DNA of 64,000 nucleotides, from positions 3,162,001 to 3,226,000 of the forward strand of contig CM065880.1 of NCBI GenBank assembly GCA_033439255.1, given 5' to 3'. The first letter of the stretch is position 1; every line of letters begins with the position of its first letter. This DNA comes from Hericium rajendrae. Its lineage: Eukaryota > Basidiomycota > Agaricomycetes > Russulales > Hericiaceae. Under the pieces are notes generated by a model that had not been told where the DNA came from, searched no databases, and saw nothing but the letters and a program-made list of their open reading frames with translations. Positions 10,209 to 36,616 of this stretch are shown piece by piece. Position numbers and translations under genes: made by a program.

Positions 10209-12579
10209 ATGGCTCCTAAGAAAAGCAATACTTCGACCGACCAAAACAAACGCGACCGCACGCAGAAGATTTTACAGTGTGCTGGTCCGACAAAGAAGAC
10301 GATAGACGGTGAGTTTATTCTCTGTGGGTTCTGTGACGCCTGACGGAGTGATTGACTATTGCATACAGGCCCTACGCCTTTGAAGTCTGGACTCAGCTCT
10401 ATAACGGCGCCTCACTTCGTCAAGAACATAGTTGATCCGCAGCTCAAGGACGACGTCAACAGGAATATGCAAGGCCTACTTGATGTCAGCGATTTCGTCA
10501 AGAACGTCTTGGGCTTCGACGAGCAGGAGCTGAAGTGGCAAGAGTGGCCGTTTAAGCCGCCTATGTCGCTCTACGACAAATATGCCGCATGTCGCCTGGA
10601 GCCGTCCCGTTATGTGCCATTCTGCGAGATGCTTGAAGATGCCTTCGAGCAATGGACCAAGGGCACACGGTCTGACCGGAAGCCCACTATCCGCCTTCAG
10701 CCAAACAAAGATGGGAAGAGGATCAAGGGCTACAAGGGTTACGAAAGGCCGAATGACCGGGACCCGGACCTTTTTTCGATTCTCCCTCATGATGATCCTG
10801 ACAAGATCATTATCCAGTGGCGGGGGATCACAATTGTCGCCGAGTTCAAGAAAAAGGGAACCCAATTGGCGGATCGACTTCAGGATATTTACCGCAAAAT
10901 GGGTCTCGTATCGTGCCCAGATCCCCCACTAACAGTTCCCAGCACATCCTCGCGCACGAAGCGGAAGCTGGAGTCGGTTGATGAAACCAACAAGGCGCAG
11001 AAGACTGGGCTTAGCTCTCTTCCATCGTCACGCGTCAATTCCCAGCCCAACGAACCCGATGTCTTCTCCGCCACAGATTCTATGGCTGCCCAAGATGGCG
11101 CTACTCCACGCGCAACGGACGATCACATTCAGCTTGCAGGGTATGCGAACGAGATGTTCGCGTCGGTCGGCAACCGGCGCTACGTTACAGGTATCTTCGT
11201 CAATGACGATAAGGTGTCGCTCTGGTACTATGATCGGATCGGCGTCGTGCGGTCGAAGGAATTCAGCTTCATCGAAGATCCAAAGCTGTTTGTGCTTGTC
11301 GCCGTTGCCGTCGCCGTCTGCGATCGCAAGCACTTTGGATACGAGCCGTTGCTCATTCCGGAGGAAGAGGTCGTCAATCCGTCGACCGTGGACAACAGCA
11401 CCCTCCGCCTTCCCGTCGGAAGCGTGGTCGACGGCGCCGGCGCTCCAATCCACGAGCCCGTTTCATTTCAGGTGCAGGGCGAACCCCTCTATATCCAATA
11501 TGGAATCATCGGACGAGGCACCGTTGTGTATTCTGTGAAGCCCAAGGAGAAGGGCGGCTTGACGCTCCCGGAGGGAAAGCTCATCGCGAAACTGAGCTGG
11601 CCGGTGAAGAGCCGCGTCGCCGAGGACTCCCTCATCCGTGACATCCGCACGAAGATTGGTCCGATGTGGTCGAGGCATATTCCGGAGCTTTTCTATTCGA
11701 TGACGCTCGATGGAGCCGCGTTGTCTCTCCCGCGCAGTCTTATGGCTTCTCTGGACGGGAGCCACGAGGAGCGTGTCCTTCGACTGTTGATATCCCGCTA
11801 CGCCCACGAGCTAAAGGATGTCAAGTCTATTGAGGAATTCAAAGCCACCTTCATTCAGTTTGTACGATGTAAGCATTGCAGGATTTCCCACCTACCCAGC
11901 CTTGCTTACCGTTCCGTTTCCAGGCCACCGATATGTGTTCGTGAAAGCAAAAGTTCTGCACAGGGACTTGAGCGTGGGTAATCTCATGTTCCTACGTGAT
12001 GGCGACACGGATCTTTTGGCCCTCCTGAATGACTGGGATCTAGGAAAACCTATCCCTGACGACGAGGACGAGGAACCTGAAACGTCTACCGCTCGTCATC
12101 GTACTGGGACAGCCCCCTTCATGGCCATCGACCTCCTTCGCAAAGACCCTCCTACCCACCTCTATCGCCACGATCTCGAATCATTTATGTATATTCTGAT
12201 TTGGTGTGCCATCCACTTCAACCTGAACGGTTCTGAAGTGCCAGGCGTCAAAGAGGTTGTGCAGCGTTGGACATACAATTCTTGGGAAGTCATCAAGAGC
12301 GTGAAGATGGAACTTCTATCGGACAAATCCGTCCAAGACTCAATTCTTGGCGCAATCACACCGGCCTTCCGTCCCTTGGAGAGATGGGTGGCAGGACTGA
12401 TCTATATGTTTGACGACGGTTACTCTGCCAGAAAGGACCGGGACAAGCGTCTCGGACGCTTGAGGTGGGATGGTAAGGACGAAACTCCGCAATCTTGGAA
12501 CGAAGATACCCTTAACGGACACATCACTTACGAGAAGTTCATGGCTGTGGTCGGCGCGGACGCAAAGCTCGACGATTAG
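10209..12579 (+). CDS. FunK1-type protein kinase
   Basis: Three exons (10209-10308, 10369-11868, 11924-12579; both introns phase 1) give 751 residues. FunK1 kinases are a family expanded in mushroom-forming fungi. The N-terminal ~400 residues hold the family's own region, with a charged linker. The kinase core is in the C-terminal half: a lysine in LIAKLSWP, catalytic loop HRDLSVGNLM, metal-binding segment NDWDLGKP (DWD where most kinases have DFG), then TGTAPFMA and HDLESFMYIL, typical of FunK1. The second intron falls just before the catalytic loop. All key residues seem present, so activity is plausible. Its target is unknown. A TATA box lies 84 nt upstream. Confidence 0.85.
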
Positions 12580-13991
12580 CATCGTCCTGGTTCGTCGCTA
12601 TTAGATAGTGGCCATCATCAATTCACGAATAGTACTGTCGTCTCGCATATATGGCCGTTATGATTTATGAATACTTACTCTTGTCTCGAACGTATGATAT
12701 ATATGATATGCCGATAAGTATACATGGTCCAGAATAGAGATGACAACTAATGTGGATCCATTTGCAGTCCTATAGTGTAGATTGAAGTATTCCAGGGGAA
12801 GGACTAACATACGGCGGTGTGTCGAGGATGGAGTCGGTGAGCGCTTTCAAAATAGTGCTGGCGGTGAATTGAGACATGACAGTGGACTCGAACACATGCA
12901 TTGAACTCCCGTCATGCTTTGTATGTCGTCGGGAATCTGTTGGCCTGCATATGAATCAAGTCATGAGTGTCGCTTCTGAAGAAGCAACGCCGTTGTACCG
13001 TAGATGTTAACGATAGAGGAAGGACACCGCAATAATGAAGTTCACACGAGAGTCAGCGGCGTCGTCAGTAAGAACCACGTTATGCTGGAGAAGGTCGAGT
13101 AGATTTGTGACTCTCGGGCGAAATTTGCAGGAAGACGTACTTACTGCATAACTGCAGGATTGGAAACAGGCCACCGGATTCTCGCAGGATTCGCATCGAT
13201 TTGCATGTCGAGAAGCCTATTCAGTGACTCATGTCGGTGTGTAGTCAAGTCTATGCGACATACGGAGGCTACAGTAAGTATGCAGTGTCAGTGTCGTAAG
13301 CGCTAGCGTGCCACGAATTTCGAGCCCTTGAAGATAGTGACGAAGAGTCAAAGCATAGACTTTCCGCTGTTCTCAACTAACGTACGCATGATGCGTAAGG
13401 CTGAGATGGTGTTCAAGTCTATGTATTGGTATCATCAGAGTGTCACGGATTACAAGGGAACGAATGGACGTGAACTAAAAGTGTTGCCACGTCATGAAAC
13501 TCCCGCCTACATGGAATAGTGTGAAAGGAGCGATTAAGGAGGCTGTTTATCTCATTCACCGAAAGAAAAAACACGCCCGAACCAAGCATCGAATCCAACG
13601 GAACGTTGGCAAAGATGCATGGCGACGAAGTGGTGAATGGTGAGGAAAAATAAACGCTGCGCAAGCCTTATAAAGATTCTTCAAGCGGAGCTTGAAATCC
13701 GCGACGGTGAGCTTGAGCTCGCCGATTCGACTCCGAGCTCGACAACGACCACGACGGCGAGCAGCACTGCAACAGTGACGAAGGCTGACTCGTTTCCTTT
13801 CTGCTCATAAACCTCTGCTTTACTTGTATCCTGCTTATCTCCAAACTGCTCTGGCCCGTTGTCGCGATCTGGTGTGTTCTACTTCTCTTCCTTGTCTTCT
13901 CCGTCTCATTGCGCTCCTTTCCGTTCTCAATTCCAGAACACGCTTATTAGAACCAAGCTCTACATCTTTCGATAAATAAAGTGTTGCCACA
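12580..13991. other. intergenic, 1.4 kb
   Basis: No gene is supported. Short open frames (for example 13328-13519 plus and 13443-13664 minus) lack domains and splice context. The 3' part, with pyrimidine-rich tracts at 13,800-13,980, is probably the RBM25 promoter and leader. Confidence 0.4.
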
Positions 13992-26337: not shown

Positions 26338-27458
26338 GTTGCGCTTTGTACAGATATTTTTGCGGGAGAGGGGCGGCGCGCTCTGCCAAGTTCTGGAAAC
26401 AAAATCTGGTTGCCATATCTGGATGATATTCGCACGATTTCTATTGCTAATAGGGTATCCGAGAGTCGGTCAACGTCGCTCCTGACGTTGCACGAACGTT
26501 GAAGCCATGTCCTTTTGACGGTTTCTCTATGTTAGTATAATTGGTACGTAAATTCGGGAGGTCGGACTCTCATGAAATCAAGGCAAGAGTCGTCTTCACT
26601 TGCTTGGATTTCCGAGTCTGTTCGGGTTTCTACGTCTTGACTCATGCTAGTGCGTTTACTACCGTTACCCTTCGCCCACTTGCCTCGCTTACATTGTTTA
26701 CGGCGTTCGCAAGCTATGCGAATGCATGGCTTATCCTTGGAGATAGAAGCCCTTTTGTCTCGTCGTGACAGCGGGCGCAGTTAAGCTGTTGATGGTGGTC
26801 CGAAAACAACTCCACTTACCCCAGGCCGAGTCATTTTCCAACCATCGAATACAACAATCCTCTCGAATGGAAAGCCTGTTTAGTCGGCAACTGATGCACA
26901 TGATAGGCTCTGCGTGACTCTCGAGATGATGAGATGACTAGCCCGGCTATAGAACAACGTCCGGGTGCGCGTTGCGCAGCCTTTCTTCCAGGAAAGGCCG
27001 CCAGTTCACTGTTTCGCATGTCACATCCTTCGCATACTCTTGCTAATGCGTATGGACCTGCAGAGTACTCAGTTGGCCACTGACCATGTGGCTCCCAGGG
27101 CCAGCTTCAGCTGCGCAACAGATGGCGCGTCTTTTCAGCGCCCGTCATCACATCACTCAGCACCATTCAGCTCGCAAAGGCGCCGATTCGGCTACGTACC
27201 CTTAACAATTCGGTGGCGTTCCGCATCTGCACGTCCTCAGACACGTATCCGCATCCTGAGCCGCGCGAGCGGTTGCCACACGTGCGGCGCAGTCATATCC
27301 ACCAGGAAGGACCCGACGGTACGTGGCGCTGACTCGATTTTGCAGGGGAAGCGTGTCCCGGCCTAGGCCACTGCCAGGAGCTCAGACCATTGTGGGTGTT
27401 GCTCGCAGCAGGGACAAGAGCTGCTCGTCGTCCTGAGAGTGTGGGCCGCCGGCTATGG
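26338..27458. other. divergent intergenic region
   Basis: This is the spacer between the PRMT gene (minus) and the small Ser-rich gene (plus). I see no supported gene and presume promoters for both. Confidence 0.4.
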
Positions 27459-27974: not shown

Positions 27975-30896
27975 GTGGCTCCGCGTCTCGATGGTATGCT
28001 GCCCTCGTCCAGCTTTCGAGCGAATGCTGATGCGCGGTGGTCTGAAACGACAGGTACGCGCCTGTGCGCTGATGTTTTTTTTCCTTGCGCCCCCGGAAGA
28101 GAGGTTTCGGGTTTGCTTTCGCTGGATTTGTGGTGGATAGGGTATTGTTATAGGTATTGATATTGCGTTCGATGGATACTGTTGATAGGTATACGTGGAA
28201 AGCTTCTGTGTTAGTCTCATTTACCTCTTTCTGCTGTATCAGTGTCATGTTTTACCTGCTATCCCGTGCGGTGCATTCTCAAGGCCTCCATACCCCGCCT
28301 TACCCCGCCTTACCCCGCCCTCGAACCTGGTGGAGGGCCGCAGCCTTCCCGATCTCCGTCGGTGCCGGCAATATCGTCATGGCTTGGCGCCAGATTCAGA
28401 TGGATCTCAGATCCGATCAAGTCCAACCTGCCTCCGCTTACGTCATATGCCCTCGGATGATTTGCGTTTGTCTCCGTCTTCCTCGACACGTCGTCAGTTC
28501 TGCTTGAGCGGGTTCTACCAGGCTCTACCTTCACGCAAACCTGTTCGTCATGCCGTTATTCTCCTGTATCTTGCTTTATCTAGGTTGACTGCCATTACTG
28601 GCCCCAAAAGCACGCAACGTATTTGATGCTCACAGCGCATGGAGCGCAGCAGGCCTACCACTGGCCCACCCGCAGCAGGCTCGCTTCTTCCTTGTTCCTC
28701 CTTCTTGCATCCCTGCGTCGATCCGCAGCAGGAGTTCTGGCGCTATACGCTGGGACCAACCCTTCCAGATCACCACAAAGTCCCGCTGTCGTGACGTCCG
28801 CTGAGCCGCCCCTGCGAGCATGCTGCACCGCGCAGCAGGGCGTCGAGCCGACTCGAGCGGACGCGCATCTTCGCGAAACACTTCGTTTCTCGGACTTCAT
28901 GGAGTGCGAAGGTGTGCCCTTCTTCCATCCGGGGCACTGATCTGCGTTGCCCGGCAATGCGGCTTGGGCCTGAGGATCGCAGCGGGGCAGCCGCGCACGG
29001 TCGCCCAATGCAGCGCGCCTAGTGCATTCCATCGGTGCCGATAAGGTCCTATGCCTTGTTCTTCCACGCCAGACTCGTATGCATCATGCCTTGGGAGGGC
29101 CGCAGCAGTTTCGGGCGGTTATAGAGGCTGGTACTTCTCGTAGATCCAGACATCCCCGCCGGAGCACCTATCGGTAACACGGGGATCCGGTGCTGTGCAG
29201 CGCCCACATGTTGAGCCTGGGCGGGCCTGCGCTGTATTTTGTAGGCTTCACCGCAGGATGTCGATGCGTAAGTGCCAGGACTGACTCAGCTTCGACAAAG
29301 CCCCGATAATGATTCAGACGTCCTTACACCCAGCGCATGACATGTGGAGCTACATTTTCTAGCCCGCTTGTTTCCAGAAATCGACAACGCCACTCGTGAC
29401 GATATCTTCACTCATGCAACTCTTCTGACACCGCCCTTTGTTTCGACATTCATCATCACTTCCATAAGCAGTAACCGTCCCAATGATGCCGATTTACCAC
29501 TCACCTCTTGACTTGTTCTGCCAGAACCCACACGCAATGCCGAACCGTCTTCACAATTAGGACCACCGCAGCCAAGCATCGCGATGAATATTGGATCCTT
29601 CGGTATCCCGTAAAGCTTGTACCGATTGGTGTCTATTTCGTCTAACTCAATATCACTCGCCCAGGGCCTTGATGGCCATATAGTACCGTGTGTATGGCAT
29701 TCTCCATCGGACTACTGGATGGCGTAGTACAAGCAAGGTCCATTAATTTTGACAAGATAAAGTGGTTCCATGGATGTCATTCTGCCGAGACGTCAAAATT
29801 GTACGTCCTTTGGCTTTTCTACTTATATCATTCCATGTCCAATCTCGGATTGCTGTCGGATGCCATACGGCAGTCCTTGGGCGGCCCTGTCTGCTAATTT
29901 TTAGAGTCTGATTCCCGGCCCACGATGGTGTAGCTGAGTAAATACAGCAGCCTCTGGATCGTAAGGCAACACAGCATCCGCTTACCAGCGATATTCGTGC
30001 CAGTGACGGAGACTGGCTGATCTGGCTGACGACAAGCCGCACTGGCCATTTCCGACTTGTCGAGAAACGCGCTGGACGTCTGCTGCCACTGGATAGATCT
30101 TGGATGAGGCCGAAGTGCTCCGGGCACTCGGACCCGTCCGAGCCGGCCGCGCGGCGATGCGGGATCCCCGCAAATGCTGCATTGCTGCTGCAATGCGCCC
30201 GACGCCGTCCGACAGCCCTCGATTTCGACCGCAACTGTATGCCATATGGCGGCAAGATCATACAAGGTCAGCACGCAAGCGGCATGAGATGCGGTTCGTA
30301 ATCTGATAAGATCAATTTGATTCTAATGGTGGTCAATAATCAATACTGGCTCCTTACTACGAATCGACCGCGAGGGTACCCCGCTCTCTATGACATGAAC
30401 GCGCCCACGATAAATACACTGCAAAGGTATCCAAAGCCCTTGGACGTGGGTATGTGCTCCGGAGTGCGAATCAACTGTGAGAGTACCCCGCCCCGCCACA
30501 TCGCCGATAGCCGATTTCGAACGGCGCGATATTCGCACGACGCACGCACTAGGACAAAGTTCCCCGGTCCACGAATATGAGATACGGGGACCTGCCTGCT
30601 TTCATTTGTTTTTTGGTGCGCATGACGTGGATAACCCCGCCGGGCACGCAGGCGTTGTTCCAGACACAGAACCCAAAACGTGGTGTCCGATCGGCCAATA
30701 GCTCTCGCCTGTGCGTCTGACTCAGGATGCTTAACGACATTGGACGCGGTGATTCCAGCCGAGTCACTGACATGCCGCCGTATCCCCACAAAAAGAAGCG
30801 CTGGAATATGCAGGCGTACGACATATAAGATGCCAGGCCATGGCGCAAAGTTAACACCATCTTTCCAGCGAATTAACCGGATACTCGCTATTTGCC
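27975..30896. other. 2.9-kb gene-poor region
   Basis: No gene is supported by domain, splice pattern or signal. Several overlapping frames on both strands (for example 28655-29032 minus, 29743-30261 minus, 30388-30912 minus) look like chance frames in GC-rich DNA. It holds the 10-bp tandem repeat at 28291-28320 and several scattered CCGCAGCAG-like words between 28640 and 29115. Confidence 0.45.
28291..28320. repeat. 10-bp tandem repeat, three copies
   Basis: The 10-mer TACCCCGCCT occurs three times head to tail, with one mismatch in the last base. Each copy contains CCCCGC, whose complement GCGGGG fits the SYGGRG consensus of fungal carbon-repressor sites (Mig1/CreA type). A regulatory role is only a guess. 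Confidence 0.6.
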
Positions 30897-31271
30897 ATGT
30901 CGCAAAACCCACCGAGCACCCCTACCCCATACACGGAATCCGACCCAACGGCACAACGCAACCCCCCCTCCGTCCCCTCGCCACCCATGCCACCCTCGCC
31001 CACGTCCTCGACCGCCGCGCTCGTCCCGAAGCCGCTGCTCCCGCAGCGGAAAAGTGTCCTGGAGAGGCTGCTCAGCAGCTCGAAGCACCCGTACACGTAC
31101 ATGTCGGACATGGGTCAGTCTCAGTCTGCCGCCCTTGTGCTTGGCTGGTTGGCTGACGGGGCGCCAGCAGGTCTTGCTGTCGACGCGGCTCAGACGTCCG
31201 CACCCTCATCCTCATCCGCTGCTTCGAAGAGGAAGTCGTCCGATGGGGGGAAGAAGGGGAGTGCGAAGTAG
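30897..31271 (+). CDS. small paralogous protein, member 1
   Basis: Exons 30897-31113 and 31168-31271 (phase 1) give 106 residues. The N-terminal half is Pro/Ser/Thr-rich. SSTAAL, then VLERLLSSSKHPYTYMSD, forms the motif shared with the genes at 33750 and 35954. The intron follows that motif directly, as in the other two. The 54-nt intron has no stop and keeps the frame, so an unspliced 124-residue form could also be made. The acceptor is a CAGCAG tandem, allowing a one-residue difference. The tail is Ser/Lys-rich (KRKSSDGGKKGSAK). A TATAAG lies about 70 nt upstream. Function unknown. Confidence 0.65.
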   Translation: MSQNPPSTPTPYTESDPTAQRNPPSVPSPPMPPSPTSSTAALVPKPLLPQRKSVLERLLSSSKHPYTYMSDMGQSQSAALVLGWLADGAPAGLAVDAAQTSAPSSSSAASKRKSSDGGKKGSAK

Positions 31272-31717
31272 CGCGTCCCTGCTCTGACACGGTTTTCCGG
31301 CTGCAGTGCATATCGAATGTCTCTGCATTTTGAGGGGAGAAGAGGATCGGCGGTCGGTTGTATTTGTTTTGGAAGGGAGGGAAACGACAGACCCGCTTGC
31401 AAGACCACGGTTGGGACTCGATGCTCTATGCTTTGTTGCAGCTTTGCCTATTTTTTTTTGTGAAGACATCCTGCTACGGTATATCCGTACTAATGGTATC
31501 CCGCATTACCCTTCTATGCGGATGGGTGATGGGTGAAATCAGCAGTAATTCAAAGAATAAATATGCAGTTCCAAATCCGCATGTCGGGCTAAATGCAACA
31601 CGCTCTGTGCTCCAACGTCGCACCGCTTGATGGCTTGAACTGACTCACGGTCCATCTGAAGGCACCGCGTGGGATTGGGGCAGCAGGATCTGCATCAAAA
31701 TGGTGAGTAGCCCAGAA

Positions 31718-31780
31718 CAACAGGGTTGCCAAGGCGGCTTGGTCGGTGAGTCAACGAGGTTCGAGAACCACTCGGTACCG
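31718..31780. repeat. diverged direct repeat, copy A
   Basis: About 62 bp similar to 31876-31935. Shared words include GGTTGCCAAG, GTGAGTCAAC and GTTCGAG, in the same order and spacing. Confidence 0.6.
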
Positions 31781-31875
31781 CTCAGCAGTCCGATGCACTG
31801 ACGATCTGTACATAGGGCTATCAGCTCTGCAAATTGCGCGCATCGAGATACAAAGGCGTCTTACTGCTCGAGCAA

Positions 31876-31935
31876 GCAACCTGGTTGCCAAGACCAGCTT
31901 GTGAGTCAACCATGTTCGAGCGCCATTCGATGCCG
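31876..31935. repeat. diverged direct repeat, copy B
   Basis: Second copy of the repeat at 31718-31780, starting about 158 bp downstream of it. Both copies end in a short GG/GC-TACCG or GATGCCG word. Origin unknown. Confidence 0.6.
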
Positions 31936-33619
31936 TTGTTTTTTGCAGTTCAGGGCTTGCCGCGCCAGAATGTCAAAAGTTTCCATTTAACCGTCGATCA
32001 CGGGCAAGGCCAGGTTCCTAAAGGAAATTGCGTGCGAGATGAGCGATGCACACATGTTCAAACTGCAGACTTACTGCCGTGAAGGGATCCAGAGCGCTCA
32101 GGTCAAAGGGCGACTGGCGCCCAGCGCTTGCTGGATATGTGCATGTCGACACCGAGGAATTGGAAATTTATGTGTCCAATCTGCGAGTGTGATGAAGGCG
32201 GCGCGTGACCATCATCGAGTTTTATGAAAAGGCCTGTCGACGACGCTATGGTGTGGCATTGAAATTTGACTACAGCCGATTGTTTCTTGCCTGGTGAGAT
32301 AAGACACGGCGAGTTCTTTACAGCACATTATCGCATATCATATAGCAGCAATATGCTGGTGCAGGCTCCACGCGTCTGGTCCACTAAAGCTCGCAGAACA
32401 GCTGCATCCGAGCTCGACATGACTAGCAAAGTCCCCGGCGTTTGAAGATGAGACAGAGTGAACCAACCGATTATAAACACGCACATGAGTATCTCTGAGA
32501 AAGAAACCTCTGCACTGTGGTCAGCATGACCTCGCACTGGCGGCATTTGGAGTCGTTGTACATTGACTCGAGGACGATGGACGAGTTGAACGTGTGGTGG
32601 CGTAAGCGCCCACAGAAGTGACGGAATAGGCGGCCCGAAATGCCGTCGCGCGCAAAGCTCCCGCCCGAAATTCTTCTCTGTAATCTTGTAAGACTTACGT
32701 TCGGTGGTCCACGCAGTTGTCTAGACCTCTTCCTCTTTCCTTTCATCAATTCCGCAGCATTTTGGGTGATGCACGTACCTCGCGCTCTGCGGCACGAGAC
32801 GAACATGCGCAGTCGCCAAACGTTTTGCCAGAAGTCTCCTGCTGCGCTCCCGATTGCGCTCTGGGCGTAACGACGCCGGAGCGCCCTGCAGGTGCCAACA
32901 TTATTGGGGTTGCGACCCTAGGTGCCTGTCATATAGCTGGACAAGCTCCGTAGGGGATTGGGACACGTATCGGGCAACTGTGCAGGTGATTTTTCGTCGA
33001 CGAACAAGCATCTAGAGGACTTGTTGCACTGCTTTGGCGTTGTGAAGAGACAACCTGTGCTATGTTGTGTTTGGCGATCCCAGCATCAGTGCTGCAAGCT
33101 GTGGTGGGCGCCTGTGGTGTTGGTCTTGGCGCTCAGATCAGCCTTCGACGATGCGCCAAGTGGCTGGGTGCCCCAGGAACACGGCCTGCGACCTTCGATT
33201 CGCAGCAACAAAAGATTGCAAAGGGGTTTCCAGTCAGACATCGTGATAGTTTCCAAACATAACCCTTCGAACAGATGAAAATTCAGTTTCATCTTTGACT
33301 TCTGCAACTCCTGTTGATCAGGCTGATACCTGAACAGCTTCGACGATCTGCGAGTGTTCGTCGGGTCTACTACAGGAATCATAGTCGCAGCGCGCTTCCG
33401 CAGGGGAGGTTTCGAGTCAAATGCCTGACTCGCTGAGACAGGCGCCCTCGTTCCTGTATTCTATTCTGGCTTCCAGTCACCGCCACCCGATGATCCAGGC
33501 GCATGACTGCGTTGAATCACGCATCGCTGTTTGTCCCTCGAGTCAATGATCGTCTTCATTGACATCTCGCGCCTATGACTGCGGAGAAGTGGCGGGCCAA
33601 GGCGCAGCAGTGCGTGGGT

Positions 33620-33627
33620 GGTATATA
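33620..33627 (+). promoter_or_regulatory. TATA box
   Basis: TATATATA lies 130 nt upstream of the ATG at 33750. Confidence 0.5.
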
Positions 33628-33749
33628 TACTTTGAAAGTGCATCCAGAGACTCCACAAGCAGCAGCAGCAGCACAGTGAGCTCTCCAGTCACATCAGACA
33701 CACTAGCAGCACCCCGTCCAGCACCCAGCAACCCAGCAACCACCCAACT

Positions 33750-34201
33750 ATGCCCCAGACACAGCTCGCCACCCTCGCATACTTCCCTGAGCCGTCGAAG
33801 AAGTCGAAGCCGTCCTCATCCTCCGCTTCATCTTCTTCGCCCTCATCCTCCACCGCGTCGCTCGTCGACGGCAAGAAGTCCTCCAAAGGAGGCCTGCTCT
33901 CGGCGCTCCTGCGCCGATCGAAGCATCCATATACCTATATGTCGGACGCAAGTGAGTATTCACCCATTGTAGCCATGCGCAAGCCTGAGCATGATCCCAA
34001 GTCTTAGCGCCAGACGCGAGGTCCGTCGTCTCGCACGAGTCGACCGCGACGCTCGTCGCGAGTCCTCCGCAGAAGGCATCTGCCACCACTGCCACCACCA
34101 CTGCCACCGCGCCGAAACGCAAACCGTCCCCCGACGAGGTCCTTGGCCAAATGGCCTCGAAGTACGGCTACGGCCTGCCGATGGGCCGATATCACAAGTA
34201 G
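33750..34201 (+). CDS. small paralogous protein, member 2
   Basis: Exons 33750-33951 and 34008-34201 (phase 1) give 131 residues. The N-terminus MPQTQLATLAYFPEP closely matches MPQTDLSGLAYFPST of member 3. A Ser/Lys stretch and SSTASLVDG lead to the shared helix GGLLSALLRRSKHPYTYMSD, followed at once by the intron. The second exon encodes a Ser/Thr/Ala linker and a C-terminal motif (DEVLGQMASKYGYGLPMGRY). No signal peptide, membrane span or known domain. The helix is amphipathic and basic, so membrane or partner binding is possible. Confidence 0.7.
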
Positions 34202-34828
34202 TCTTGTCCTGTCGTGTCTTCTTCCCGGGCGGAGCGGGAGGCAAAAGATACTTTAGCGCGGACGAGATACCCCATCTGCACTCGTATAATGGTAATGTAC
34301 TGTACTCTCACGGTCTGCCTTGCGCGGTTATAATGCCTCGGTAGTGTAATGGATGGATTTCCTCGGTTTAGAACAGTGTTGCAATGACATCATCTGTGCT
34401 TGACGACGCCTCCTCGACCATGAGAGTCGCCCATTTAAGCCGTGTTAAGCCTGAAGCACCCAGAAACAATCGCATCCGATCAGAATTACCCAGTGGGGAT
34501 GCTGGCAATCGGACAGCCTCTTCCACCTCGTCTCAGCTCTATGTCATCCGACGCTTTGATCCCCGGCAGCACAGACGATCGAGCCTCCAGATCGTCCAGA
34601 TCGCCCTCCGAGGTTGCTAAGGAAAGACGATTCCGGGGTAAAGCACGGGGTCGTTGCAAACGAGCCGGCGGGGGGCGCATTCTATGGAGGGGGATCGTAC
34701 TAGAATATCTGTCCCGTCCCGAATGGCAAAAATACCAGCGGCACTCGCAGCGCTTCTATGCACGTTTCGCATGGCAAAGAGCGCACTCGCACTGTAGAAC
34801 GGATTAACAGCAGACTCGACGTCGGCGA
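34202..34828. other. intergenic with possible decayed repeat
   Basis: A 121-codon frame at 34442-34807 is basic and Ser/Arg-rich. It has no domain, and I do not call it a gene. A GACCATGAGAGTCGCC word near 34417 resembles the start of the repeats that follow. Confidence 0.35.
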
Positions 34829-35243
34829 AGATGAGAGTCCGACCCTGCTATGGCGTTCGCTGGACTGCTGCGGAATAAGACTGTTGGTTCCTTGAACCTG
34901 AAATGTGCAGCATCAGTGCACGTCGATCGCTCACCTGAGGAGAAACCTCAGAATCCGCAGTAGTTTTGAAATGAACCCGAAAGCACGAGAGTCCGACCAT
35001 GCGAAGGAAGGAAAGAAGGAAGTATCGTTCCTAGCTGGATTGCTGAGAGACGAAGTTTCGTCGTTATCTGAACCTGAAAACGCGGACGACGGTGAGAGTC
35101 GTGTTGTCACACGTGGGGGACGCACGAATCCGCAGCATAGTGGGCGTTCACCAGCAGACGAGAGCACGACCCAGCTTCCTTCCTCGTTCAGCCTGCTGCG
35201 GAATAAAATCCAGGAAGAAAGGAAGCTGAATGCGCAGCAATGA
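34829..35243 (+). repeat. three decayed tandem units with coding look
   Basis: Three diverged direct repeats lie at about 34829-34963, 34984-35140 and 35158-35243. Each opens with a GA(T/C)GAGAG word. Each contains a CTGCTGCGGAATAA-like core and closes with GAATCCGCAG or GAATGCGCAG plus a stop. The translated cores are alike: FAGLLRNK, FLAGLLRDE and FSLLRNK. They sit between small-family members 2 and 3, and the core recalls that family's GLLSALLRR helix. They may be relics of extra family copies or a small expressed peptide. Confidence 0.5.
34971..35243 (+). CDS. possible 90-residue protein made of two repeat units
   Basis: An ATG frame covers units 2 and 3 of the repeat region. It carries FLAGLLRDEVSSLSE near the start and FSLLRNKIQEERKLN at the end, and is highly charged. 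It has no upstream TATA box that I can see and no splice evidence. It could be a real small gene or just the longest surviving frame in decaying repeats. Confidence 0.25.
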   Translation: MNPKARESDHAKEGKKEVSFLAGLLRDEVSSLSEPENADDGESRVVTRGGRTNPQHSGRSPADESTTQLPSSFSLLRNKIQEERKLNAQQ

Positions 35244-35870
35244 GCGACCCGTGCGCAGACGTACACCCATAATTCAGGCTCGACCCGTGCCCACTCCTCC
35301 CCCCTCCCGCGCGTCCAGGTACCAGTGCCTGCAAGGGCGGAGGGATAATGACTGAGCATGAGTTCGATCTGTTATCTGATAAGACCAAACGTTCATGATC
35401 GTGAGTATTGACCGGATGCATTGATGCCGTACATACTACCGCCGGGATCTTCGACGAGGCGTCTAACGCGCCCGACCCAGGGCGACCTAAAGTAAATATG
35501 CAGTGGGCTCCTCGGAGCCGGAGAAAGGACCGCGTTATGCTACACGCGCTGCAACCTCTACTCCATTGGAGCACGGGGGGGTACCATCAGAACTGCGGAG
35601 CAGCGAGAGATGTGGTTACTTACCACTCATACGACCGAAGCGCGCTGCATCAGGCGGCCACCAACACACCTGACTCAGGCTGACTCGGAATGACTTGATC
35701 TCACCCGCCACGCCGCAATTTAGCTCCTCGGATGCGAGAAACAACCTCCCTGGCAGGTGGTTGTGGACCGACGCGAGCGCGTCCGGCGTTGAGGGACGGA
35801 TTGCATATGTCGCAAATCGCGTGTCCATAAACGCGTATGCGCCCTCTCCCCATTCGGACAAGAGCCAACG
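35244..35870. other. intergenic region
   Basis: I see no gene here. The end of the stretch is the core promoter of small-family member 3. Confidence 0.4.
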
Positions 35871-35876
35871 TATAAA
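35871..35876 (+). promoter_or_regulatory. TATA box
   Basis: TATAAA lies 83 nt upstream of the ATG at 35954. Confidence 0.5.
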
Positions 35877-35953
35877 GGGGGCGTCGCGTGCTCTCGAGTC
35901 ATATCAGGACTTCCTGCCACCACATCTTCATCCCCTGCACCAACGAACGCACC

Positions 35954-36616
35954 ATGCCGCAGACCGATCTCTCTGGCTTGGCCTACTTCCCCAGCACGAA
36001 CCCCCAGAAGTCGGCGCGCAACCGCACCGCGGGCACTACCACCACCACCTCGTCGAAGCCGCCAACGCCGTCGTTGCCCAGCGTAAAATCATCGAAGCCG
36101 GCACCTGCATCGAGCTCGCCGGCCTCCTCGACCGCGACGCTCCTCGACGGCGCGCAGTCCAAACGGTCGTTCGGCGGGAAAGGCAAGGGCCTGCTCTCTG
36201 CCATGTTCAAGCGGTCGAAGGCCCCGTACCACCACGCACAGGAGTCCAGTATGTCCACCCACCATCTTGACAACTATCGCACCACTGATCGCATGCCGCG
36301 CAGCGTCGACGCTAGGCTCCGTCGCGGCGTCGTCGCAGCCCGACTCGGACACGACCCTCGAGGCGACTGAGTCGGGGTCGGGGAGTTTCCAAGGCGGTGA
36401 GCAGCTGGGGTTGGGTGAGTGCTTGTTGTATGGCGGAAGGCAGGTTGATGCTCACCGTGCGATGCGGGTGTAGGTTCCATTCCTGAGCTGGACCAAGGTG
36501 CTACAGAGGCGCCGAGGGCGTTGACTACGATGGAATCAGATGGCGATAAGGACGCCGCGGGCCATGACGGCAAAACGTCCTCGGAGGCCGCTAATATCAC
36601 TGCTCTAGGAATATAA
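35954..36616 (+). CDS. small paralogous protein, member 3
   Basis: Exons 35954-36248, 36304-36414 and 36474-36616 (both introns phase 1) give 182 residues. The N-terminus MPQTDLSGLAYFPST and SSTATLLDG match member 2. The shared helix has drifted to GLLSAMFKRSKAPYHHAQES and is again followed directly by an intron. The longer C-terminus is acidic and Ser/Thr/Gly-rich (DSDTTLEATESGSGS), and it lacks the ASKYGYG motif of member 2. No known domain. Gain of a third exon suggests this copy has diverged most. Confidence 0.65.

What the first reader, a model, noticed from the sequence alone, without database searches (positions are those of the whole stretch)
30897..36616. A family of small, undescribed proteins with a shared basic helix and intron position
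Genes at 30897, 33750 and 35954 share SSTA-x-L, then LLSALLRRSKHPYTYMSD or a drifted form, with a phase-1 intron immediately after that motif in all three. Members 2 and 3 also share MPQT-x-L-x-x-LAYFP. Outside these parts they are Ser/Pro-rich and differ freely. No signal peptide, membrane span or known domain is visible. Each has its own TATA box or a close TATA-like word, which suggests strongly regulated expression.
Basis: partly seen in the sequence, partly recalled or inferred. Interest (0 to 1): 0.75.

Follow-up and report, generated by a model that had tools for sequence, protein, structure and literature searches.

The report
Tandem trio of small fungal proteins
Three neighbouring genes in a mushroom-type fungus encode related, probably unstructured small proteins of unknown function, and their promoters carry the same switch sequence as several amino-acid-synthesis genes, which suggests they are made when the fungus runs short of amino acids.

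Summary
Three same-strand genes (105, 131 and 178 aa) share SSTA-x-L-[VL], a short amphipathic helix with SK-x-PY, and a phase-1 intron exactly 34 nt past the first base of the Ser codon of SK-x-PY. Each pair aligns better than any of 2000 shuffles. In searches of their own 46.8-Mb genome only the neighbouring copies stand out: a local tandem family. Pfam, NCBIfam and PDB sequences give nothing. A fold of exon 1 shows coil with one helix, at low confidence.

New here: TGACTC/GAGTCA is the most over-represented shared 6-mer in the three 350-bp upstream regions: 8 sites against 0.55 expected, 0 of 400 random triples as extreme. It matches the Gcn4-type site reported for Ganoderma GCN4 (PMC10653791, passages). 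It also lies upstream of 4 of 6 amino-acid-synthesis genes checked here and 0 of 1 degradative gene. Best reading: amino-acid-starvation-inducible disordered proteins that dock to a partner through one Phi-x-x-Phi-Phi helix. Regulation is moderately supported; docking is inference. Homologues in other fungi could not be searched.

The parts
30897..31113 (+). G1 exon 1 (aa 1-72 plus one base)
31114..31170 (+). G1 intron 1, 57 nt, phase 1, in frame and stop-free; GTCAGT...CTGAC...CAG
31171..31271 (+). G1 exon 2 with stop; KRK near the C-terminus
31005..31025 (+). G1 SSTAALV motif
31053..31109 (+). G1 helix motif SVLERLLSSSKHPYTYMSD
33750..33951 (+). G2 exon 1, begins MPQTQLATLAYFP
33952..34007 (+). 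G2 intron 1, 56 nt, phase 1
34008..34201 (+). G2 exon 2 with stop; PKRKPSP near the C-terminus
33846..33866 (+). G2 SSTASLV motif
33891..33947 (+). G2 helix motif GLLSALLRRSKHPYTYMSD; predicted helix is residues 49-56 (low confidence)
35954..36248 (+). G3 exon 1, begins MPQTDLSGLAYFP
36249..36315 (+). G3 intron 1, 67 nt, phase 1
36316..36414 (+). G3 exon 2
36415..36473 (+). G3 intron 2, 59 nt (a donor 18 nt upstream, at 36397, is an equally in-frame alternative)
36474..36616 (+). G3 exon 3 with stop
36125..36145 (+). G3 SSTATLL motif
36188..36244 (+). G3 helix motif GLLSAMFKRSKAPYHHAQE
30718..30723 (+). TGACTC element (TGACTCA), G1 -179
30761..30766 (-). TGACTC element (TGACTCG), G1 -136
30823..30828 (+). 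ATATAA, TATA-like, G1 -74
33414..33419 (-). TGACTC element (TGACTCG), G2 -336
33426..33431 (+). TGACTC element (TGACTCG), G2 -324
33540..33545 (-). TGACTC element (TGACTCG), G2 -210
33622..33629 (+). TATATATA box, G2 -128
35671..35676 (+). TGACTC element (TGACTCA), G3 -283
35681..35686 (+). TGACTC element (TGACTCG), G3 -273
35871..35876 (+). TATAAA box, G3 -83
35896..35901 (-). TGACTC element (TGACTCG), G3 -58

Best explanation
Three paralogues arose by local tandem duplication of one small gene. SHOWN here by sequence: common descent of the three (shared protein motifs, same intron position and phase, neighbouring places; no other copy found in the genome by these searches). SUPPORTED but not shown: all three are targets of the fungus's general amino-acid control, a Gcn4/CPC1-type bZIP acting through TGACTC(G/A) clusters and a TATA or TATA-like word, so the proteins would be made when amino acids or nitrogen run short. 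INFERRED: the proteins are disordered adaptors. One conserved Phi-x-x-Phi-Phi amphipathic helix with the basic SK-x-PY tail folds on binding a hub protein, while SSTA-x-L and the Ser/Pro-rich tails hold phosphorylation or turnover signals that differ between copies. KRK clusters in G1 and G2 make a nuclear place plausible, so the likeliest role is a small modulator of the starvation transcription programme, for example a coactivator-binding competitor. My rough odds: real family 0.95; general amino-acid control 0.6; disordered adaptor docking by the helix 0.45; nuclear transcription modulator 0.15.
For: Descent: alignment scores beyond all 2000 shuffles for each pair; intron at the same nucleotide and phase in 3 of 3; in protein searches of 46.8 Mb only the neighbouring copies stand out. 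Regulation: TGACTC/GAGTCA is first of the 14 6-mers present in all three 350-bp upstream regions, 8 sites vs 0.55 expected, 0 of 400 random triples as extreme. Six of 8 are TGACTCG. The 1000-bp upstream regions share no word longer than 12 bases in any pair, so the sites are not a by-product of alignable promoters. Only 0.5% of 350-bp stretches elsewhere in the window (30.3-36.2 kb left out) hold 3 or more sites and 1.8% hold 2 or more. TGACTC lies within about 225 bp upstream of the likely start in 4 of 6 independent amino-acid-synthesis genes of the same genome (argininosuccinate synthase, tryptophan synthase, isopropylmalate synthase, homocitrate synthase), 6 of their 7 sites being TGACTCG. 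A mushroom GCN4 is reported to bind GA[C/G]TCA by yeast one-hybrid, EMSA and ChIP-qPCR (PMC10653791, passages). Helix: exactly one Phi-x-x-Phi-Phi match per protein, in the conserved segment in 3 of 3; predicted helix 49-56 in an otherwise coil model; 66-72% polar or disorder-promoting residues (S, P, T, G, Q, K, E, D, N, R), no Cys or Trp.
Against: No expression data. The TGACTC word was found after looking at the promoters, though a word-by-word control was run. With 1000-bp regions it ranks second, behind a CAG-type repeat. A further cluster (3 sites, 31641-31908) lies downstream of G1 and far from any of the three starts. HIS1 and HIS3, textbook general-control genes (recalled), have no TGACTC upstream in the loci read, so 2 of 6 controls fail. 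In an unguided ranking of those six promoters TGACTC is first among 6-mers, but TGACTCG is only third of 12 7-mers. The isopropylmalate synthase start is uncertain. The responsible bZIP was not identified: of 3 bZIP_2 loci found, two have a basic region that I recall as Cys3/MetR-like, and bZIP_1 was not searched. The fold has mean pLDDT 61.6 and pTM 0.21 from a 3-row alignment, so the helix is weak evidence. Phi-x-x-Phi-Phi is a short, common pattern. G3 lacks a KRK cluster and has net charge -1, against one shared nuclear role.
Confidence: 0.4

Rival explanations
1. A tandem family of disordered proteins under another bZIP or Myb programme (AP-1/Yap-like oxidative stress, or Bas1-like purine/histidine control), the TGACTC resemblance to general control being shared core chemistry. 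Function: stress-phase cytosolic disordered protector rather than adaptor.
For: TGACTC is a core read by more than one factor class (recalled). Two of 6 amino-acid genes lack it. Two STRE-like AGGGG words lie near the G3 start, at -78 and -22. Composition is Ser/Pro-rich and disorder-prone.
Against: TGACTCG, the commoner form at G1-G3, recurs in four amino-acid-synthesis promoters. A protector would not be expected to keep a sequence-conserved 19-residue helix segment.
Confidence: 0.25
2. Peptide precursors (pheromone-like, KEX2-processed or RiPP-like), the conserved stretch being the mature peptide or leader.
For: Small size, tandem arrangement and a conserved short block between variable parts; a dibasic site directly before SK-x-PY in G2 and G3 only.
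Against: No secretory signal is visible, no CAAX end (ends SAK, YHK, LGI), no repeated core seen, and the dibasic site is absent from G1.
Confidence: 0.05
3. Spurious or decaying reading frames: GC-rich, low-complexity DNA that looks coding.
For: Ser/Pro-rich composition inflates alignment scores; coding GC3 is 0.77-0.78 but high GC3 is common in this window's exons; G1's intron can be read through.
Against: Shuffles of the same composition do not reach the scores; differences in the shared blocks are most frequent at third positions in G1-G2 (13 of 22) and G2-G3 (20 of 40) (the blocks were chosen for protein likeness, and G1-G3, 11 of 32, does not show it); intron place is identical in 3 of 3.
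Confidence: 0.05
4. A known, conserved basidiomycete protein family, annotated 'hypothetical protein' elsewhere, of which this is an ordinary set of members.
Against: No Pfam or NCBIfam model matches (NCBIfam is prokaryote-oriented); five motif strings occur in no paper of the held library, which says little, since papers rarely print sequences.
Confidence: 0.25

Closest known systems
Gcn4/CPC1 general amino-acid control regulon (UAS_GCRE, TGACTC / GA[C/G]TCA)
   Same: Clustered TGACTC sites upstream, as in four amino-acid-synthesis genes of the same genome; same core as the site reported for Ganoderma lucidum GCN4.
   Different: The products are not enzymes or transporters. The listings I saw (15 of 45 papers; 2 papers; titles and abstract starts only) name no small disordered tandem paralogues as targets. 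The base after TGACTC is mostly G, where the classic yeast site has A (recalled).
Unannotated conserved gene families of Agaricomycetes (158 such families in Coprinopsis cinerea by PMC10949477; one characterised member, snowball snb1)
   Same: No known domain, fungal.
   Different: SNB1 is predicted to have seven transmembrane helices (PMC10949477, passages); these are short, soluble-looking and disorder-prone. Whether they belong to one of the 158 families could not be tested.
Disordered proteins with a Phi-x-x-Phi-Phi (LxxLL-type) coactivator-docking helix (recalled)
   Same: One amphipathic Phi-x-x-Phi-Phi segment in a Ser/Pro-rich chain.
   Different: No DNA-binding domain, no partner known; resemblance is a short pattern only.

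Membership tests
Tandem paralogue family (G1-G3) | Sequence similarity beyond composition | tested here: met
   0 of 2000 shuffles reach each pair's score
Tandem paralogue family (G1-G3) | Shared intron position and phase | tested here: met
   34 nt after the first base of the Ser codon of SK-x-PY, phase 1, 3 of 3
Tandem paralogue family (G1-G3) | Homologues with the same intron in other fungi | not testable with these tools
   No other fungal genome is held for this window (note); exon 1 of G2 has no relative in the prokaryote collection
Gcn4/CPC1 general-control targets | TGACTC-type sites over-represented upstream | tested here: met
   8 sites vs 0.55 expected, 0 of 400 random triples
Gcn4/CPC1 general-control targets | Same element upstream of amino-acid-synthesis genes in this genome | tested here: inconclusive
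   4 of 6 genes yes, HIS1 and HIS3 no; 0 of 1 degradative gene
Gcn4/CPC1 general-control targets | Induction on starvation that depends on the factor | not testable with these tools
   no expression data
Any Pfam family | Profile match | tested here: not met
   0 families at E <= 10 for 3 of 3 (HMMER's filters drop most matches above about 0.1)
Basidiomycete pheromone precursors | C-terminal CAAX | tested here: not met
   ends SAK, YHK, LGI
Small secreted proteins / effectors | N-terminal signal peptide | tested here: inconclusive
   none visible by eye in the sequences (printed); no predictor available
LxxLL / Phi-x-x-Phi-Phi coactivator ligands | Conserved Phi-x-x-Phi-Phi helix | tested here: inconclusive
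   pattern met: LERLL, LSALL, LSAMF, one match per protein; the helix itself is predicted only for G2 and at low confidence
LxxLL / Phi-x-x-Phi-Phi coactivator ligands | Binding to a coactivator domain | not tested
   no complex prediction or binding data

The most novel reading that the evidence does not exclude
Mushroom-type fungi have a previously unseen output arm of general amino-acid control: a tandem set of disordered micro-adaptors with one conserved docking helix, induced together with amino-acid synthesis, which retune the transcription or signalling machinery by competitive helix docking and diversify through their free tails.
Probability: 0.12. Interest if true: 0.75.

Novelty: new variant of a known kind. 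Interest (0 to 1): 0.42.

Why it matters
Orphan disordered proteins are among the least understood parts of fungal genomes, and usually nothing says when they act. Here the promoters offer a concrete hypothesis, general amino-acid control, that one starvation RNA-seq experiment can test, and the conserved helix offers a bait for finding a partner. If right, it adds a non-metabolic arm to a classic starvation regulon in basidiomycetes.

Tried and rejected
Domain searches: Pfam and NCBIfam at E <= 10, none; PDB sequences with the core profile A2, none. Prokaryote genomes with exon 1 of G2: 597 pattern matches, none a relative. Weak hits of the proteins elsewhere in the genome (six loci: L004-L007, L014, L017) were read by eye and show no shared motif; one search read the three minus-strand loci in the wrong orientation and one search corrected this with the same outcome. 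G2's last 29 residues have no relative in the genome. Further or decayed copies in the window: none with tblastn. RNA genes: no tRNA in the window, no Rfam family above gathering score at 28-39 kb. Bacterial-type promoter and terminator scan: at chance level and not relevant to a fungus. Promoter words tried beside TGACTC (1000-bp regions): STRE 6 vs 3.6 expected, heat-shock GAANNTTC 2 vs 0.6 and TTCNNGAA 0 vs 1.5, Mig1-like 9 vs 5.6 (7 in G1), PacC 5 vs 3.1, CCAAT 5 vs 4.2, GATA 4 vs 2.2, E-box 1 vs 0.6, CRE and pheromone-response 0: none is as strong; CTGATAAGA occurs at -594 of G1 and -578 of G3 but not in G2. Own-genome controls: pyruvate carboxylase (L038) was not scored because its start lies outside the locus; the second HIS3 copy, 98% identical over 3.1 kb, has no site either and was left out of the count. 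DNA alignment around exon 2: too gapped to use. Fold search was not run because the model is too uncertain. Papers: searches; I saw titles and abstract starts of the listed papers (15 of 41, 15 of 45) and passages of three (PMC10563202, PMC10653791, PMC10949477); none seen names this family, which is no proof that it is not in print.
Full report
What is there. Three genes lie head to tail on the plus strand: G1 30897-31271, G2 33750-34201, G3 35954-36616. Their spliced products are 105, 131 and 178 aa. The splice sites are GT...AG with lengths of 57, 56, 67 and 59 nt. Intron 1 falls in phase 1, exactly 34 nt after the first base of the Ser codon of SK-x-PY, in 3 of 3 genes. The G2-G3 protein alignment runs on into exon 2; a DNA alignment of that part is too gapped to add to this. 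The neighbours are ordinary: trehalase, carboxylesterase and arginine methyltransferase exons upstream, an NFACT-R (CCDC25-like, name recalled) gene on the other strand, and a gene downstream resembling 2OG dioxygenases, below Pfam's cut-off.

More than chance. Pairwise local scores are 94 (G1-G2), 78 (G1-G3) and 135 (G2-G3); the best of 2000 shuffles per pair is 85, 76 and 85, so G1-G3 clears it only narrowly. In the motif blocks, differences at codon positions 1, 2 and 3 are 7, 2 and 13 for G1-G2 and 14, 6 and 20 for G2-G3, but 14, 7 and 11 for G1-G3; the blocks were chosen for protein likeness. Searching the whole genome (46.8 Mb, 19 contigs), the helix segment of G2 finds itself, G1 (E 0.006) and G3 (E 0.04) and nothing else at E <= 10; G3's exon 1 finds G2 at 3e-4 and one unrelated place at 0.26; full-length G2 finds G3 at 0.008 and four places at 0.48 or worse. 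G1's full-length query finds G2 only at E 0.25 and an unrelated place at 1.25, so the case for G1 rests on the helix segment, the shuffles and the intron. No other member was found; the tool scores only its best candidates, so a very divergent copy could be missed.

What the proteins look like. They are rich in Ser, Thr and Pro (36-46%), without Cys or Trp. AlphaFold2 on exon 1 of G2, with the other two as alignment, gives a coil with one helix at residues 49-56 (LLSALLRR), mean pLDDT 61.6 and pTM 0.21: consistent with disorder plus a short helix, but weak. Each protein has exactly one Phi-x-x-Phi-Phi match and it is in this segment: LERLL, LSALL, LSAMF. G1 and G2 have KRK near the C-terminus; G3 does not. 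G2 also has a second STATLV in exon 2, resembling its SSTASLV (seen in the sequence). No family matches in Pfam, NCBIfam or PDB sequences.

The promoters. Among 6-mers present in all three 350-bp upstream regions (14 words), TGACTC/GAGTCA is by far the most over-represented: 2, 3 and 3 sites, 0.55 expected, and in 400 random triples of 350-bp stretches of the window no triple had a word as extreme. All eight lie within 340 bp of the start; six read TGACTCG and two TGACTCA. With 1000-bp regions the word falls to second place behind a CAG-type repeat. Another cluster of three lies at 31641-31908, downstream of G1 and away from the starts. The 1000-bp upstream regions share no word longer than 12 bases in any pair. 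G2 and G3 have a TATA box and G1 a weaker ATATAA.

Is it the general-control element? TGACTC is the sequence bound by yeast GCN4, by a paper title seen in a reference list (Arndt and Fink 1986). In Ganoderma lucidum GCN4 is reported to bind GA[C/G]TCA, tested by yeast one-hybrid, EMSA and ChIP-qPCR (PMC10653791, passages only). I looked at genes of this genome found by Pfam family; gene names are mine, by family and recalled protein likeness, and starts were chosen by eye. TGACTC sites within 350 bp upstream: argininosuccinate synthase 2, tryptophan synthase 2, isopropylmalate synthase 2 (start uncertain), homocitrate synthase 1, HIS1 0, HIS3 0 (its 98% identical second copy also 0, left out); degradative HMG-CoA lyase 0. 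So 4 of 6 amino-acid genes and 0 of 1 degradative gene carry it, and 6 of the 7 sites are TGACTCG. An unguided ranking of words found in at least three of those six promoters puts TGACTC first of 102 6-mers but TGACTCG third of 12 7-mers. This supports general control without proving it. The factor was not identified; of three bZIP_2 loci two have a basic region that I recall as Cys3/MetR-like.

Reading. I take the trio as a tandem family, of unknown age, of disordered proteins under general amino-acid control, each carrying one docking helix. The helix-docking role is inference from anatomy; a nuclear transcription modulator is only the likeliest of several roles. The finding is real and gains a testable regulatory link, but the molecular function is open, and relatives in other fungi could not be examined.

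Noticed in passing
L021 (G000 C7 about 3.127 Mb) and L022 (G000 C12 about 0.888 Mb): Two copies of a HIS3-type gene (IGPD) on different contigs, 98% identical over 3.1 kb including flanks; the copies differ in where the reading frame stays open around one intron. Could be a recent segmental duplication or an assembly artefact.
   Followed up: partly
window 31746-31935: A direct repeat of 35 nt (80% identical, 155 bp apart) between G1 and G2, each copy holding a GAGTCA word; no RNA family matches.
   Followed up: partly
window 12880-13450 and 26570-26980: Two further dense TGACTC clusters (3 or more per 350 bp) outside the trio region; which genes they serve was not worked out.
   Followed up: no
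window 31114-31170: The G1 intron is 57 nt, in frame and without stop, so intron retention would insert 19 residues right after the conserved motif.
   Followed up: no
window 10356-11978: An exon matching Pfam Pkinase_fungal (PF17667).
   Followed up: no
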